Origin: Conexibacter arvalis
Lineage (GTDB): Bacteria; Actinomycetota; Thermoleophilia; Solirubrobacterales; Solirubrobacteraceae
Direction: 5' to 3'
Assembly (NCBI RefSeq): GCF_014199525.1
Contig: NZ_JACHNU010000002.1
Coordinates: 664,147-728,146, forward strand
DNA length: 64,000 nt
Shown piece after piece: positions 12,531 through 19,666 of this stretch. The position numbers and the translations under genes were made by a program. The first letter of the stretch is position 1. Every line of letters starts with the position of its first letter. The notes beneath the pieces were generated by a model that had not been told where the DNA came from, made no database searches, and saw only the letters and a program-made list of their open reading frames with translations.

Positions 12531-13944
12531 CTACGGGCGCTTCTGCGCGATCGGCAGCCAGACGTGGAAGACGGTCCGCCCCGGTCTGGAGTCGACCGAG
12601 AGGCTGCCGCCGTGGCGGTCGGTCACGATCCGCCGCGCGACGTCGAGGCCGAGGCCGGTGCCGGAGCCGACCTCCTTCGTCGTGAAGAACGGGTCGAAGA
12701 CGCGGCTCTTGACGTCGTCGGGGATCCCGGGGCCGTCGTCGCCGACCTCGACGACGACGCAGTCGCCCTCGCGGCGGGTCGAGAGCGTGATCGTGCCGGC
12801 GTCGCCGAGCGCCTGGATCGCGTTGTGGATCAGGTTGGTCCACACCTGGTTGAGCTCCGAGCCGCGCATCTCGACCCTCGGCAGCGACCTGTCGTAGTCG
12901 CGCACGACCTCGATCGACGTGTGCTTCAGCTTGTGCTTCATCACCCTCCAGCGTCGTGTCGAGGCCCTCGTGGACGTCGGCGACGACGACCTCGCCGCGG
13001 TCCATGAACGCGTACGACTTGACGGCGCCGACCAGCTCGCTCATGCGGTCGGTCGACTCGGCCAGCTCGTCGGCGAGCGTGTGCGCCTGCAGCGAGGCGG
13101 CGACCCATCTGACGACCGCGTCGACGGCGTCGCCGGCGATCCCGGCGACCTTGCGGACCCACGCCTCGTCGGCGCCGGCGGCGACCAGCGGCTCGGCCCA
13201 CCGCCATCCCTCCGCGACGCCCAGCTCGTCGAGCAGGTCGCCGATCGCGTCCTCTGCGTCGGCGCGCTCGAGCGCGCTCAGCGGCTCCTGCTCGCGGGCC
13301 TGCTCCTGGAGCGCGTCCTTGCACGCGACGACCTTTCCCGCCTCGGCTCGGTCGACGCCGGCCTCGACCAGCTTCGCGACCATCTGCTCGTAGACCGCGA
13401 GCGTCTCGGCGAGGTCGGCCGAGGCGCGCTTGGCGGCCGCCGCCGGGTTGTTCAGCTCGTGCGCGAGCCCGGCCGCCATCGTGCCGAGCGAGGTGAGCCG
13501 CTCGCGGTTGGCCTCGCGCTCGGTGCTGCGGCGGATCACCGGCCGCATCTGGCGCATCACGCGCTCGAAGACCGGCCGCGTCCGCAGCACCAGCTCGACG
13601 AAGCGGTCGCGCGGGATCGTCGCGATCCGCCCCGGCGTCTCCGCCTCCATCCGCACCTGGTGCCAGCCGAGCGTCAGCGTCGGGATCGCGCCGACCCACG
13701 TCGGCGCGACCTGGACTCCCTCGGGCTCGACGCGGCCGTCGGCGACCGAGGAGACGCGCAGCCTGCCGGCGAGCAGCAGGTGGAGGCCGTAGCCCTCCTG
13801 CCCGGCCTCGACGACCCGCTCGCCGACCGCGACGTCGCGCACGTCGGCGGCGCCGACCCACGGCTCCAGCTGCTCGTCGCTCGCCTCGTCGAAGAGGTCG
13901 ATCGCGCGCAGGTCGGCGAGCGTGAGCGGGGTCGTTGCGGTCAT
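12531..13944 (-). pseudogene. cNMP-binding sensor histidine kinase with a one-base frameshift
   Basis: About 470 residues if repaired. Residues 1-130 form a cyclic-nucleotide-binding domain (LADLRAIDLFDEASDEQLEP). The H-box is GLAHELNNP with His162, followed by a long helical region. After the frame break the ATPase domain shows NQVWTNLIHNAIQAL (N box), VGDDGPGIP (G1) and GSGTGLGL (G2). The break is at about 12948: the coding strand reads CTGGAGGGTG, and removing one G restores T-L-R-V-M-K-H-K across the join. The open length (1414) is one more than a multiple of three. It is a genuine mutation or a sequencing error. Its ATG overlaps the stop of the upstream TrxR-like fusion (ATGA), so it is the partner kinase of that protein. 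Confidence 0.85.
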
Positions 13945-15620
13945 GCCTCGGCCAGGTACTCGTGGACGAGCGAGACCGACATCGAGCCCTCGCCGACGGC
14001 GCTCGCGACGCGCTTGACCGAGCGGGCCCGCACGTCGCCGGCGACGAAGACGCCGGGGACGTTGGTCTCCAGCAGGAACGGGTCGCGCGCCAGGCCCCAG
14101 CCGTGGTCGCGCACGTCGAGGCCGGCGAGCACGAACCCGCGCGGGTCGCGCGCGACGACGCCGTCGAGCCAGTCGGTGCGGGGCGCCGCACCGATGAAGA
14201 CGAAGCAGGCGTCGACCTCCTCGATCCACTCGGCGCCGTCGCCGGAGCGCAGCGTCAGGCGCGCGAGATGGCCGTCGTCGCCCGCGGCGGCGACCGCCTG
14301 CGTGCCGGTCCGCACCTCGACGTTCTCCAGCGCCGCGATCTGCTCGATCAAGTAGTGCGACATCGACCTCGTCAGCGACTCGCCGCGCACGAGCATCGTC
14401 ACGCGGCTGGCGTACTGGGCGAAGTGGACGGCCGCCTGCCCGGCCGAGTTCGCGCCGCCGATCACGACGACGTGCTGGTCGCGGCAGGAGCGCGCCTCCG
14501 TCAGCGCCGCGCCGTAGTAGACGCCGGCGCCGGTCAGCTCGGCGAAGCCGGGCGCGTCGAGCTGGCGGTAGGAGACGCCGGAGGCGATCAGCACGCTGGT
14601 CGCGCTCAGCTCGCCGCCGCCGGTCAGCTCGACGAAGCGGCCCGAGCCCTCGACCCGCAGCCGCGTCGCGTCCTGCATCGTCAGCAGCTCGGCGCCGAGG
14701 CGGCGGGCCTGGTCGGCGGCGCGGCGGGCGAGGTCGGAGCCCGACAGGCCCGACGGGAAGCCGAGGTAGTTCTCGATCCGGCTCGACTGGCCGGCCTGGC
14801 CGCCCGGCGCCTCGCGCTCGACCAGCGCCGTCTTCAGCCCCTCCGATGCGCCGTAGACGGCGGCCGCCAGCCCGGCCGGGCCGCCGCCGACGATCACGAG
14901 GTCGTAGTGGTCGGCGGCCGGCACGCCGACGACGCCGAGCCGCTCGGCCAGCTCCAGCACCGAGGGACGCTCGATCACGGCGCCGTCCTCCAGCAGCACG
15001 ACCGGCAGCCGGTCGGGCGCGACGTCGGCGATCGTCAACAGCTCGCGCGCCTCTCTGTCGCGCTCGACGTCGAGCCAGTTCGCCGGCACGCGGTTGCGGG
15101 CGAGGAAGTCGCGCAGGTCGTGCGACTCCTTCGAGAAGCGGTGGCCGATCACGCGCACGCCGCCGGCCTCCAGCGCGGCCCCCGACTCCCACGTCGTCAG
15201 CAGGTCCTCGAGCACCGGGTAGAGCTGCTCCTCCGGCGGGTCCCACGGCTTCATCAGGTAGTAGTCGAGCGCGACCTCGTTGATCGCCGCGATCGCCGCG
15301 TCGGTGTCGGCGTAGGCGGTCAGCAGGACGCGCTTGGCGTCGGGCACGAGCTCGCGCGCCTTCGCGAGGTACTCGGTCCCCTCCATCCCCGGCATCCGCT
15401 GGTCGGCGACCAGCAGCGCGACCTGCTCGCCGCGGGCGCGCACCTGCGCGAGCACGTCGAGCGCCTCGGCGCCCGAGGAGGTGCGCATGATCCGGTAGCG
15501 CTCGCCGAAGCCGCGGCGCAGGTCGCGCGCGACGGCCGCCAGCACGGCGGGCTCGTCGTCGACGGCGAGGATCACGGGGCGGCGCTCGGCCGCGGGTGGG
15601 GCGTCAGTCGTGGCGGCCAT
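13941..15620 (-). CDS. response regulator / thioredoxin-like / thioredoxin-reductase-like fusion protein
   Basis: This 559-residue protein has three parts. Residues 15-140 are a receiver domain with phosphoacceptor Asp73 (LLVADQRMPGMEG), the acidic pair DD at 21-22 and a Lys in YYLMKPW. Residues about 155-225 resemble a thioredoxin/glutaredoxin fold without CxxC. Residues 232-555 form an FAD/NADPH reductase with DLVIVGGGPAGLAAAV and VVIGGANSAGQAA. The redox CxxC expected before the second nucleotide motif is missing: the region reads GVYYGAALTEARSC. It therefore probably moves electrons or senses NADPH/FAD state without being a classical thioredoxin reductase. It is co-translated with a cNMP-binding histidine kinase, its likely signalling partner. 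ATG at 15620. Confidence 0.9.
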   Translation of the reverse strand: MAATTDAPPAAERRPVILAVDDEPAVLAAVARDLRRGFGERYRIMRTSSGAEALDVLAQVRARGEQVALLVADQRMPGMEGTEYLAKARELVPDAKRVLLTAYADTDAAIAAINEVALDYYLMKPWDPPEEQLYPVLEDLLTTWESGAALEAGGVRVIGHRFSKESHDLRDFLARNRVPANWLDVERDREARELLTIADVAPDRLPVVLLEDGAVIERPSVLELAERLGVVGVPAADHYDLVIVGGGPAGLAAAVYGASEGLKTALVEREAPGGQAGQSSRIENYLGFPSGLSGSDLARRAADQARRLGAELLTMQDATRLRVEGSGRFVELTGGGELSATSVLIASGVSYRQLDAPGFAELTGAGVYYGAALTEARSCRDQHVVVIGGANSAGQAAVHFAQYASRVTMLVRGESLTRSMSHYLIEQIAALENVEVRTGTQAVAAAGDDGHLARLTLRSGDGAEWIEEVDACFVFIGAAPRTDWLDGVVARDPRGFVLAGLDVRDHGWGLARDPFLLETNVPGVFVAGDVRARSVKRVASAVGEGSMSVSLVHEYLAEA

Positions 15621-15760: not shown

Positions 15761-18700
15761 TCAGCGCACGCTGCGGCGGACCTGCTGGACGGTCGATCTG
15801 CGACCGTCGCGCTCGGCCCACACCGACAGCCGCACGATGCGGCCCTTCAGCGCCTTGCCGCGCACCTTCGCGGGCAGCGTCACCGTCGGCAGGCCGCCGG
15901 CGACGTTGCGCTTGACGACCGTGCCGAGCGTGACGATCCGGACGCAGCGCTTCGCCCGCTTCGCCTTCGCGGCCGCTCTGCCGGTGACGCAGCGGCCGCG
16001 CACGCGCTTGCCGGCGCGGCGCTCGACGACCTTCACGCGCACGGTGCTGCGCGCGTCGAGCCGCAGGCCGAGCGCGACGCGGCCCTTGCGCACCCGCGCC
16101 GACAGCAGCCGCAGCTGCGGTCTGGCCGGGGTCGCTCTCGGGCCTCTCGGCTGCGGCTGGGGCTGGGGCTGCGGCTGGGGCTGGGGCTGTGGCTGCTCGC
16201 CGCCTCTCGGCAGCTCCGGCGCCTTCTCGGCGACCTTGAAGGCGTAGCTGCCGGCCGCGACCGCGATCACGACGGTGTCGCGCTCGACCCGCACGCCGGC
16301 GACGCCGGGCGCCTGCTCGGCCGGGCGGCCGCCCTCGGTGACCGCGTCGGCGTCGGCGTCGAACGGCAGGCGGATCTCGGCGGTCGTGCCGGCCGGGATC
16401 GTCACGTCGTGCGTGATGACGCCGCGCTTGGACCGTCTCCACGAGCTCGACACGACGCCGCGCGGGGTGCGGTACGTCGCCGTCGCGCACTCGAGCTGGG
16501 AGATGATCGCCGGCTCGATCACGAGCTGCTTGTAGCCGACCGTGCCGGGCGCCTGCTCGATCCCGGCCGCGCCGCTCGTGAACCACTCCTGGATCGCGCC
16601 GAGCATGAAGTGGTTCTGCGAGTTCTCGCCGGTGTCTCTCGTCGGGCCGTCCCACGCCTCCGTCAGCGCGGTCGCGCCGTTGATCACCTGGTAGGCGTAG
16701 CTCGGCGAGGTCGGGACGGTCGCGACGTCGTAGATCACGTCGTCGCGGCCGGCCTGCTCCAGCACGCGGAACAGGGCCGGCAGCGCGACGATGCCGACGT
16801 CGGTGTTGCCCTTGACGCGGATCGACGCCAGCAGATGGCGCAGCACGGCGGGACGGTCGGCCTCCGGGACGAGGCCGGCGTCGAGCGCGAGCGCGTCGGA
16901 TGCCTGGCTGCCGGAGCCGTAGGTGACGCCGTCGCCGCGGCGGTATCTGAGGTTGAACGCCGCTCTGATCTTGTCGTGCAGCTGGCGGTACTCGGCCGCC
17001 TTCTCCGTCTCGCCGAGCACGTCGGCGGTCAGCGCCATCTGCTCGGCCATGCGGGCGTAGCCGGCGGTCGAGACGAGGCCCTTCGGGGTCGAGCCGTCGA
17101 AGGTGAACCAGTCGCCGAGCGTGTCGTAGTCGAGCAGCCCGGTCGGCGCCTTCGAGGTCAGGTAGTCGATGTACTTGACCATCGCCGGCCACGCCGTGCG
17201 GATCGTCTGCGTGTCGCCGTAGGTCAGGTACAGCTCGTACGGCATGAAGATCATCGCGCCGCCCCAGTTGGGGTCGTCGTCGAACATGTTCCGTCTCGCC
17301 CCGCCGAACTGCGAGTACTGCGGGATGATGTTCGGCACGAACCCGTCCGGGTACTGGTTCTCGATCATCTTCCTGATGATCGAGCGGGTGTGCGCGAGCA
17401 CGTCGTAGGTCAGCTCGACGCCGCGCAGGTTGAGCTGGTGGTCGCCGAGCCAGCCGAGCTTCTCGCGGTGCGGGCAGTCGGTCATCACCGAGTACATGTT
17501 CGACTGCGTCGCGCGGTCGATGATGCGGTGGATGTCGTCGAGCATCTGCGTGCACGACGAGAAGGTGCCGATGCTCTCGTTGGCCGTCCGCAGCACGAGG
17601 CCGCGGACGTCGTCCTTCGTGATCGCGGCGCCGGCCGGCATCCCCTCGATCTGCAGGTAGCGGAAGCCGTGGTACATGAACTTCGGGTGCCACGTCCGGC
17701 GGCCGCTGCCGTCGGAGGTGTAGCTGCTCCACATGCCGGTGCGGACCGACTGCTGGTTGACCGTCCCGTTGGCGTGGACCTTCTCGGCCGGGCGCAGTCT
17801 GATCGTCGTGCCCGCGGGCAGGTCGACCGAGATCTGCGGCCAGCCGGCGAAGTTGATCCCGAGGTCGACGGTGTATCTGCCGCCGCCGAGGTCGATCACG
17901 TTGACCGGCTTCAGCTCCTCGACCTGCTCGATCGGGGGCGCGTCGAGGCCGCTCAGCTCGACGCCGGCGGCGGCCGCGTCGCGGTTGACCGGCGCGGCCC
18001 AGGAGGAGCGGTCGGTGCCGGGCTCGTCCCAGCCGGGGATCGCGCGGCGGGCGTCGAACGACTCGCCGCCCCACCACCAGGAGGCGGTCGTCGGGCCGAG
18101 CGTCGTCCTCCAGTCGGTGCCGGTGTCGACGACCTGGCGGCTGCCGTCGGTGTAGGTGATCTCGACCTGGCCGATCACGCGCGGGCCGCCGACCGAGCGG
18201 GTCAGCTTCGCGTAGCGGCCGTCGGTCGGGTTGATCGCGTCGTACATGCCCGACGCCAGCTCGACGCCGATCGCGTTGGCGCCGTCGCGGATCAGCCTCG
18301 TGACGTCGTAGGTCGCGTACTCGGCCCGTCTCTCGTACAGCGTGTAGCCGGGCTGCAGGACCGCGTCGGTCACCTCGCGGCCGTTGAGCGTCGTGCGCTG
18401 GACGCCCTGGCCGGCGAGGTAGATCCGCGCGTGGGCGACCTGCTTGCCGGGCTCGGTCTCGAAGTCGGTCGCGAACAGCGGCAGGCCGGCCGGGCCCTCC
18501 GGCAGTCTCGCTCTCTGGGCGGTGCGGCTGCCGACGGTCGCGTAGGTCGCGTCGTCGTCGGAGACCTGGAGCGTGAAGTCCTCCGGGAAGTTGGGGACGA
18601 GGCCGGCCTCGGTGCGCGCGTCGGTGCGCGGCCACAGCTTGATCGTGTCGAACGTTCTTCTGCTGCCGAGGTCGAGCTTGATCCAGACGTTGGCGTCCTG

Positions 18701-19543
18701 GGTGGTGAAGGCGTTGGAGGTGAAGCCCTTCGGGTTGCCGCTGGTGTGGGTGACGCCGTCGACCAGCGCTCTCGGGGTCCAGCCGCAGCAGTTGAGGATG
18801 TTGTTGCCGGTGACGGCGGCGCCTCTGGCGCGGTTGACGCTGCCGGCGGCGGTGTCGACAACCTCCAGCTCGGCGAGCTGGAGGTGGGGGCTGTCGGGCG
18901 CGTCGCTGGCGCCGATGCCGAGGCGGGTGGCGTCCAGTCTGATGTAGCGGGCGTTCTGCGCGCCGACGTTCACCTCGATCGGCTCGCTGACGACCCCTTC
19001 GTCGTAGCGTCTGTTGCCGATCCACGAGCCGGTCCACTCGGCGCGGTCGAGCAGGCCCAGCTCGAAGGTCGCCGGAGCGCTCCAGTCCGAGACGGCGCCG
19101 TGCTGGTCCCACGTGCGCACCTGCCAGACGACGCGCGAGCGCGAGGTCAGCGGGGCGCCCTCCCATCTGATGTCGCTGACCTGGGCGCTGTCGACCTTGC
19201 CGGTCGACCACAGGTCGGGGCTGGCGAGGCGCGCCTCGCTCGAGGCGGCGCGGATCTCGTAGGCGCTCTGCGCGGCGCCGCGGGCGCTGGAGTCGAGCCG
19301 CCAGCTGAGCGTCGGGGTCGTCACGTCGATCCCGAGCGGCTCGCGCATGTCCTGCGTGCGCAGGGTGCTCGGAGCCACGTCGGCGGCATGCGCGGTCGCG
19401 GCGCCTGCGAGCGCGCCCGGGAGCGCGAGCGCGAGCGCCGCGACGGCCGCACTGGCGGTGGCGGTGGCGGTCGCGCGGCGGGGCCTGCGGGCCGTCCGGC
19501 CATGCGGCGGCCGTCCGCGGTCGCGGGTGGTCGATCTCTCCAC
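15761..19543 (-). CDS. secreted GH78 alpha-L-rhamnosidase with discoidin-type domain
   Basis: This enzyme of 1260 residues removes terminal L-rhamnose from glycans or glycosides outside the cell. A long basic signal peptide ends near residue 54 (TAHA-ADV). An Ig-like N-terminal domain follows, then an F5/8-type-C (CBM32-like) insert at about 190-340. The Bac_rhamnosid domains with the catalytic (alpha/alpha)6 barrel span about 600-1010, where DCPHREKLGWLGD at 689-701 carries the expected acid residues. The C-terminal beta domain is joined by a (QP)n linker at about 1117-1131 to a basic C-terminal domain of about 125 residues. GTG at 19543 is chosen because AGGAGGAGGACAGG precedes it; an upstream ATG would add residues read from the operator region. 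Confidence 0.93.
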   Translation of the reverse strand: MERSTTRDRGRPPHGRTARRPRRATATATASAAVAALALALPGALAGAATAHAADVAPSTLRTQDMREPLGIDVTTPTLSWRLDSSARGAAQSAYEIRAASSEARLASPDLWSTGKVDSAQVSDIRWEGAPLTSRSRVVWQVRTWDQHGAVSDWSAPATFELGLLDRAEWTGSWIGNRRYDEGVVSEPIEVNVGAQNARYIRLDATRLGIGASDAPDSPHLQLAELEVVDTAAGSVNRARGAAVTGNNILNCCGWTPRALVDGVTHTSGNPKGFTSNAFTTQDANVWIKLDLGSRRTFDTIKLWPRTDARTEAGLVPNFPEDFTLQVSDDDATYATVGSRTAQRARLPEGPAGLPLFATDFETEPGKQVAHARIYLAGQGVQRTTLNGREVTDAVLQPGYTLYERRAEYATYDVTRLIRDGANAIGVELASGMYDAINPTDGRYAKLTRSVGGPRVIGQVEITYTDGSRQVVDTGTDWRTTLGPTTASWWWGGESFDARRAIPGWDEPGTDRSSWAAPVNRDAAAAGVELSGLDAPPIEQVEELKPVNVIDLGGGRYTVDLGINFAGWPQISVDLPAGTTIRLRPAEKVHANGTVNQQSVRTGMWSSYTSDGSGRRTWHPKFMYHGFRYLQIEGMPAGAAITKDDVRGLVLRTANESIGTFSSCTQMLDDIHRIIDRATQSNMYSVMTDCPHREKLGWLGDHQLNLRGVELTYDVLAHTRSIIRKMIENQYPDGFVPNIIPQYSQFGGARRNMFDDDPNWGGAMIFMPYELYLTYGDTQTIRTAWPAMVKYIDYLTSKAPTGLLDYDTLGDWFTFDGSTPKGLVSTAGYARMAEQMALTADVLGETEKAAEYRQLHDKIRAAFNLRYRRGDGVTYGSGSQASDALALDAGLVPEADRPAVLRHLLASIRVKGNTDVGIVALPALFRVLEQAGRDDVIYDVATVPTSPSYAYQVINGATALTEAWDGPTRDTGENSQNHFMLGAIQEWFTSGAAGIEQAPGTVGYKQLVIEPAIISQLECATATYRTPRGVVSSSWRRSKRGVITHDVTIPAGTTAEIRLPFDADADAVTEGGRPAEQAPGVAGVRVERDTVVIAVAAGSYAFKVAEKAPELPRGGEQPQPQPQPQPQPQPQPRGPRATPARPQLRLLSARVRKGRVALGLRLDARSTVRVKVVERRAGKRVRGRCVTGRAAAKAKRAKRCVRIVTLGTVVKRNVAGGLPTVTLPAKVRGKALKGRIVRLSVWAERDGRRSTVQQVRRSVR

Positions 19544-19584
19544 GTCCTGTCCTCCTCCTTCGCCCGCCGAAGCTGTCCCGCCCC

Positions 19585-19632
19585 GAACCGCCCAGCGTCG
19601 CTTTTTGTTCGATTCGGGCGGTTGAACCGCCC
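19585..19632. promoter_or_regulatory. palindromic operator upstream of the rhamnosidase gene
   Basis: GGGCGGTT-G-AACCGCCC at 19616-19632 is a perfect 8+1+8 palindrome. The half site GAACCGCCC recurs at 19585-19593, 42-83 bases upstream of the GTG start. This looks like a repressor operator controlling the rhamnosidase. The cognate regulator is not adjacent. Confidence 0.6.
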
Positions 19633-19666
19633 AAACCGTCACCATTCGCACTTAACCGCGCGTAGA

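What the first reader, a model, noticed from the sequence alone, without database searches (positions are those of the whole stretch)
12531..15620. Redox-signalling pair: receiver/thioredoxin-reductase-like fusion without CxxC, coupled to a cNMP-binding kinase
The reductase part lacks the redox CxxC, and the middle thioredoxin-like part also lacks one. Together with a receiver domain and a co-translated kinase, this suggests a flavin- or NADPH-sensing signalling unit and not thioredoxin reduction.
Basis: partly seen in the sequence, partly recalled or inferred. Interest (0 to 1): 0.5.

Follow-up and report, generated by a model that had tools for sequence, protein, structure and literature searches.

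The report
Kinase-paired flavoprotein without disulfide centre
A probable soil bacterium carries a widespread but little-described two-gene signalling unit in which a kinase probably switches a flavoprotein shaped like thioredoxin reductase but stripped of its disulfide chemistry, although the kinase gene reads as broken in this particular sequence.

Summary
Window 15620-13941(-) encodes a 559-residue receiver + glutaredoxin-like + thioredoxin-reductase-like protein with two cysteines and no CxxC. Its stop overlaps the start of a histidine kinase with a cNMP-fold domain. One extra base near 12949 splits the kinase frame in this window.

The family is not a decayed enzyme. It is found in seven phyla. 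Residue 370, the place of the first TrxR redox Cys, is Gly in 101 of 101, and receiver and kinase catalytic residues are conserved. A kinase follows within 400 nt in 63 of 102 other loci. The same module also occurs fused to a cNMP-fold domain instead of a receiver, which favours the flavoprotein being a regulated output, not the sensor. The family also travels with a small zf-UBP zinc-finger gene: 17 of 43 such genes lie within 6 kb, 0.24 expected.

The receiver-TrxR combination is in print as a domain architecture; I found no function. 'Not thioredoxin reduction' is well supported, 'signalling unit' supported, 'NADPH/flavin sensing' undecided, cyclic-nucleotide binding by the kinase unlikely.

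The parts
13941..15620 (-). Receiver + glutaredoxin-like + TrxR-like flavoprotein, 559 aa
15234..15572 (-). Receiver domain (residues 17-129); phosphoacceptor Asp73 at 15402-15404, Lys124 at 15249-15251
   Evidence: Pfam PF00072 54.8 bits; Asp73 97 of 101, Lys124 98 of 101; positions
14925..15164 (-). Glutaredoxin-like middle domain (about 153-232); Ser163-Lys-Glu-Ser166 at 15123-15134 in place of Cys-x-x-Cys
13950..14906 (-). TrxR-like FAD/NAD(P) module (239-557) without CxxC; Tyr369-Gly370 at 14511-14516, Cys379 at 14484-14486
   Evidence: Pfam Pyr_redox_2 131.5 bits; site Gly in 101 of 101; VIA Z 35.4 to TrxR 5mh4; positions
12950..13944 (-). Histidine kinase, N part: cNMP-fold domain (Pfam stretch 13585-13836), His162 at 13459-13461 (GLAHELNNP)
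12948..12949 (-). Place of the single extra base relative to five relatives (frame break)
   Evidence: relatives in frame
12531..12948 (-). Histidine kinase, ATPase part in the other frame (HATPase_c about 12546-12857)
13941..13944 (-). ATGA overlap of fusion stop and kinase start

Best explanation
A two-component system with a flavoenzyme output. The kinase autophosphorylates on the conserved His of GLAHELNNP in answer to a signal read by its cNMP-fold domain (ligand unknown, probably not a cyclic nucleotide). It passes the phosphate to Asp73 of the receiver, which controls, through the glutaredoxin-fold linker, a FAD- and probably NAD(P)H-dependent reductase that hands electrons from flavin straight to a non-disulfide acceptor or partner; the small zf-UBP protein is a candidate partner. 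Shown: anatomy, conservation, gene pairing, loss of CxxC at both sites, a separate canonical reductase in the genome. Inferred: phosphotransfer and its direction, NAD(P)H use, the acceptor. In this strain the kinase is broken in the sequence as given, so here the unit is either inactive or mis-sequenced.
For: Receiver acidic pair, Asp73, Lys124 kept in 97, 97 and 98 of 101. Kinase His, N and G boxes invariant in 35 of 35. Kinase within 400 nt downstream in 63 of 102 other loci, and somewhere in the fetched flank in 81 of 102; in 61 relatives, 17 of 18 genomes with a receiver-bearing copy of at least 51% identity have the kinase (window's broken one included), the exception G055 having lost the receiver's acidic pair. 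TrxR module has 63 of 322 columns conserved at 99% or more, including Gly370 and Arg531, Arg537. The predicted module fits the flavin-reducing form of TrxR (5mh4 rmsd 1.9; 1f6m, the TrxR-thioredoxin complex, 2.3) better than the other form (5mjk 7.2; 1tde 7.6) (assignment of 1f6m and 1tde to forms is recalled). The same module carries a cNMP-fold input (6 of 6 tested pass Pfam) or none (L110, L112, L113).
Against: No activity, cofactor or phosphotransfer was measured. The recalled NADPH 2'-phosphate motif HRRxxxR of TrxR is only partly kept (VRG; Arg412 invariant), so NADPH use is uncertain. 21 of 102 other loci show no kinase in the fetched flank, some for want of flank. In the paralog group 2 of 8 keep a live-looking receiver with no kinase found in their genomes (L103/G060, L106/G044). 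The window's kinase is frame-broken.
Confidence: 0.55

Rival explanations
1. Redox sensor: the flavin/NAD(P)H state of the TrxR-like part sets how the receiver takes or holds phosphate, or feeds back on the kinase, so the pair reports the cell's reducing power.
For: No CxxC, so the flavin could be read without thiol chemistry; strict gene pairing with a kinase; no further output domain in the fusion.
Against: Receiver can be replaced by a cNMP-fold input on the same module, and versions without any receiver or kinase exist (L110, L112, L113); these would have nothing to report to.
Confidence: 0.2
2. Pseudoenzyme: the flavoprotein is a phosphorylation-gated scaffold or binding protein, with the zf-UBP protein as client, and flavin has only a structural role.
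For: Both thiol centres lost; linkage and co-occurrence with zf-UBP.
Against: New near-invariant residues at the former active site (Tyr369, Gly370, Glu375) look like a kept active site; 63 of 322 columns at 99% or more.
Confidence: 0.12
3. Thiol chemistry by a single cysteine: Cys379 serves as a one-Cys disulfide reductase in the manner of YpdA/Bdr-like enzymes (recalled comparison).
For: Cys379 is Cys in 88 of 101.
Against: Cys379 is Tyr, Leu, Met, Val, Arg or other in 13 of 101 whose module is otherwise kept; it lies about nine residues past the CxxC site; TIGR04018 (YpdA) scores 65.3 against a cut-off of 339.9.
Confidence: 0.05
4. For this strain only: the unit is a recent pseudogene, its kinase being lost by the frameshift (this can be true together with any reading above).
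For: One extra base at about 12949; the window's own locus (L001, L005) is the only one flagged with the two parts in different frames. The zf-UBP gene of this genome is on another contig.
Against: The fusion (87%) and both kinase parts (66% and 77%) stay close to a copy of the same genus (L086) without other damage, so a one-base sequencing or assembly error is as likely. Other breaks exist too: L070 and L080 inside the ATPase part, G025 and G027 split, G002 with one TAG.
Confidence: 0.4

Closest known systems
[quoted passage not shown]
   Same: Same domain combination as named there; the window protein very probably belongs to it.
   Different: The passages seen do not mention the missing CxxC, the glutaredoxin-like domain, the kinase partner or zf-UBP.
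Proteins named 'cyclic nucleotide-binding domain-containing thioredoxin-disulfide reductase' (e.g. Deinococcus aquaticus WP_273991014.1)
   Same: Same glutaredoxin-like + TrxR-like module.
   Different: cNMP-fold domain in place of the receiver; no kinase annotated in the stretch shown.
AhpF
   Same: Thioredoxin-fold part before a TrxR module; top Foldseek match over the whole chain.
   Different: AhpF has CxxC in both parts (described in PMC8945050 passages); here neither; TIGR03140 161.2 vs cut-off 502.9.
Low-Mr thioredoxin reductase
   Same: Fold and FAD module (Z 35.4 to 5mh4).
   Different: No CxxC; TIGR01292 195.2 vs cut-off 343.45.
TrxR-like ferredoxin/flavodoxin-NADP reductases (B. cereus FNR1/FNR2)
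   Same: TrxR fold; non-thiol electron transfer (recalled); Z about 28.
   Different: No input domains; closer to TrxR than to FNR in fold score.
Glutaredoxin Rv3198.1 (2lqo)
   Same: Middle domain matches over 69 residues (E 5.1e-8).
   Different: Both cysteines replaced by serine in the profile.

Membership tests
Low-Mr thioredoxin reductase | Redox CxxC in the NAD(P) domain | tested here: not met
   Residue 370 Gly in 101 of 101; residue 373 not Cys among the residues listed; no CxxC at the site in any of 101; none in the window chain
Low-Mr thioredoxin reductase | NCBIfam TIGR01292 cut-off | tested here: not met
   195.2 vs 343.45 bits
Low-Mr thioredoxin reductase | TrxR fold | tested here: met
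   Z 35.4, rmsd 1.9, 302 residues to 5mh4, on a predicted model
AhpF | CxxC in the N-terminal thioredoxin-fold part and in the TrxR part | tested here: not met
Glutaredoxin / mycoredoxin | Family sequence similarity | tested here: met
   Profile of 14 members to 2lqo E 5.1e-8; the single window sequence alone is below the Pfam cut-off
Glutaredoxin / mycoredoxin | Catalytic cysteine | tested here: not met
   Residue 163 has no Cys among 101; residue 166 Cys in 2 of 101
Two-component response regulator | Receiver with acidic pair, phosphoacceptor Asp and Lys | tested here: met
   Asp21, Asp22, Asp73, Thr101, Lys124 present in the window protein
Two-component response regulator | Phosphorylation by a partner kinase | not testable with these tools
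   Only gene pairing was seen
Histidine kinase | Phosphoacceptor His, N and G boxes | tested here: met
   Invariant in 35 of 35 relatives; also present in the two window parts
Histidine kinase | One intact reading frame in the window | tested here: not met
Cyclic-nucleotide-binding domain | Pfam cNMP_binding | tested here: met
   29.4 vs cut-off 27.5 bits; 34.7 in L086
Cyclic-nucleotide-binding domain | Phosphate-binding cassette with Arg (pattern recalled) | tested here: not met
   Absent in the window; 4 of 63 relatives match the pattern, two of them spurious by eye
FNR-type TrxR-like oxidoreductase | Ferredoxin/flavodoxin reduction | not tested
   Only overall fold similarity, Z about 28
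YpdA/Bdr | NCBIfam TIGR04018 cut-off | tested here: not met
   65.3 vs 339.9 bits

The most novel reading that the evidence does not exclude
A large, uncharacterised bacterial module (glutaredoxin fold plus TrxR fold, both stripped of their redox cysteines) is a phosphorylation-gated flavin reductase whose partner is a bacterial zf-UBP protein: a kind of two-component output that switches electron flow and not transcription.
Probability: 0.28. Interest if true: 0.7.

Novelty: new variant of a known kind. Interest (0 to 1): 0.45.

Why it matters
The family is kept across distant phyla with an invariant alternative active site, a dedicated kinase and a linked ubiquitin-type zinc finger, so it points to an unassigned redox function under direct signalling control, testable with two or three purified proteins.

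Tried and rejected
Misread or displaced CxxC: rejected; none at the site in 101, none in the window chain; five of 101 have a CxxC elsewhere, at 340 or 437. Programmed frameshift in the kinase as a family trait: rejected, the 63 adjacent kinases used were read in one frame; not excluded for this strain. Decayed enzyme: disfavoured by 63 near-invariant columns in the TrxR module. Conserved neighbours by clustering ORFs gave mainly antisense noise; the zf-UBP link came from a motif that I recalled and then tested (18 hits over 114 loci and the window, none in the window) and from HMM searches. Foldseek on the kinase model listed only kinase cores among the rows shown, so the cNMP-fold domain rests on Pfam and predicted secondary structure. 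The middle domain was not folded alone; one search says that regions outside 235-559 were barely tested by its list.

Literature searches gave no functional study of the fusion, the kinase pair or the zf-UBP link; only openly licensed PubMed Central papers were covered. I saw passages of PMC5847659 and PMC8945050 ('receiver' and 'cyclic nucleotide' do not occur in its text); all other papers only as search listings.

Full report
What is there. On the minus strand 15620-13941 encodes 559 residues: receiver 17-129 (Pfam 54.8 bits), then about 80 residues, then Pyr_redox_2 239-545 (131.5 bits). The stop overlaps the ATG of the next gene (ATGA, 13941-13944). That gene begins as a histidine kinase with a cNMP-fold domain, but its ATPase half is in another frame. 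Against five relatives the window has one extra base at about 12949. In one search the window's own locus is the only one flagged with the two parts in different frames. Other copies are damaged too: L070 and L080 break inside the ATPase part, G025 and G027 have split matches and G002 has one TAG. So the local copy is broken or mis-sequenced.

CxxC. The window protein has cysteines at 379 and 472 only. In an alignment of 101 (the window plus 100 loci whose match begins by query residue 20 and reaches 550) residue 370, the place of the first TrxR redox Cys, is Gly in 101; Glu375 is kept in 99, Cys379 in 88. Five of 101 have a CxxC elsewhere, at 340 or 437, none at the site. The middle domain is a glutaredoxin relative: a profile of 14 members matches PDB 2lqo (M. 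tuberculosis Rv3198.1) at E 5.1e-8 with both cysteines replaced; Pfam Glutaredoxin is the top hit in 4 of 4 members tested, over cut-off in 1. Residue 163 is Ser in 90 and 166 is Ser in 76 (Cys in 2) of 101. The genome has a separate TrxR with CATC (L003).

Spread. They come from Actinomycetota, Cyanobacteria, Chloroflexi, Acidobacteria, Bacteroidota, Deinococcota (Meiothermus) and Pseudomonadota (Caballeronia), at 49-79% identity. The closest named ones (75-79%) are Patulibacter, Solirubrobacter, Conexibacter and other Solirubrobacterales, so the window probably comes from that group.

The kinase pair. Of 104 loci two (L001, L005) are the window itself. Of the other 102, 63 have an in-frame kinase of this family downstream on the same strand within 400 nt, and 81 have one somewhere in the fetched flank; 21 show none, some for want of flank. 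In the seven Bacteroidota loci it lies upstream on the same strand. Among 61 related genomes 18 have a receiver-bearing copy of at least 51% identity (G002 and G032 cut by contig ends); 17 have the kinase, the window's included; the exception, G055, has lost the receiver's acidic pair (L102: Gly, Ser). Two further genomes have a kinase match without such a copy: G027, at a contig start, and G034, partial. Of 19 kinase places 15 lie within 74 nt of a family gene. A paralogous group (42-45% identity, 8 sequences, one of them in the window's genome) has lost the phosphoacceptor Asp in 6 of 8; L103 and L106 keep it, although their genomes G060 and G044 show no kinase of the family. In the main group L035 has also lost it. 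The window's genome has one kinase of the family.

The kinase itself. His, N and G boxes are invariant in 35 of 35. The model of the congeneric L086 kinase (pLDDT 87.0, pTM 0.55) shows a beta roll, a long helix with the His, helices at 196-252 inserted before a second long helix, and an ATPase domain; Foldseek ranks ZraS and HK853 structures first. The insert may be why Pfam reports no HisKA (inference). The cassette motif of cyclic-nucleotide domains is absent from the window kinase and from 59 of 63 relatives.

The flavoprotein model (58 sequences, pLDDT 88.3, pTM 0.77). The TrxR module fits L. lactis TrxR in the FR conformation (5mh4, rmsd 1.9, Z 35.4) better than in the FO conformation (5mjk, rmsd 7.2, Z 31.0). 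In FR the nicotinamide can stack on the flavin (recalled). That suits direct NAD(P)H-flavin transfer, but it is a prediction. 63 of 322 columns of this module are conserved at 99% or more, 6 of 118 in the receiver, 3 of 80 in the glutaredoxin-like part. No NCBIfam cut-off was reached among the 25 rows shown.

Input swapping. The same module occurs with a cNMP-fold domain in place of the receiver (L107, L108, L109, L111, L114, L134: 6 of 6 tested pass Pfam) and without an input domain (L110, L112, L113). One output with several inputs argues that the flavoprotein is regulated and not the sensor. In the two-component form the cNMP fold sits on the kinase, as if the same kind of input had been moved there (inference).

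zf-UBP. A Streptomyces fungicidicus record annotates the fusion, an 'ATP-binding protein' and a 'UBP-type zinc finger' protein as three overlapping genes; the Nostoc and Caballeronia records show fusion and kinase but no such gene in the stretch, and the Deinococcus record shows neither kinase nor zinc finger beside its cNMP-type copy. In 61 relatives, family (best E 1e-80 or better) and zf-UBP both occur in 32, family alone in 3, zf-UBP alone in 3, neither in 23 (Fisher p 1.4e-10). In a phylum sample of 119 the same four counts are 19, 5, 6, 89 (p 1.1e-12). That drops eight genomes with weaker matches (E 1e-69 to 1e-50), none with zf-UBP; counting them as family gives 19, 13, 6, 81 (p 5.6e-9). 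At least four genomes are in both samples, and no test corrects for relatedness or genome size. Linkage is a further line: 17 of 43 zf-UBP genes lie within 6 kb of a family gene (0.24 expected), 18 if the kinase is counted. In the window's genome the zf-UBP gene (107 aa) is on another contig, and none was seen in the window.

Verdict. Not a thioredoxin reductase in function; a response regulator with a flavoprotein output. The fusion is known as a domain combination (PMC5847659, passages). I found no paper on its missing CxxC, kinase or zinc finger in the searches listed under Tried and rejected. Most likely it is a kinase-switched, non-thiol flavin reductase; sensing remains possible.

Noticed in passing
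L116:1423-1746 (-), G000:C1:336949-337134: The window genome's only zf-UBP gene (107 aa) stands apart from the window pair, whereas in many relatives it follows the kinase.
   Followed up: partly
L013, L014, L024, L036: Two or three kinases of this family lie beside one fusion gene, as if several inputs fed one output.
   Followed up: no
L002:1435-3156 (-): Paralog in the window's genome with a dead receiver (Asp73 to Pro) and no kinase in the fetched flank; same CxxC-less module.
   Followed up: partly
L086:79-1476 (-), model residues 196-252: Helical insert between the two long helices of the kinase's dimerisation part.
   Followed up: no
G025:C1:1645213-1648844: Both fusion and kinase give split matches in one relative, which hints at frame breaks or low sequence quality there.
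   Followed up: no
window 15761-19651 (-): Large ORF upstream (1296 aa from its first start) that looks by eye like a secreted alpha-L-rhamnosidase (name recalled, not searched).
   Followed up: no
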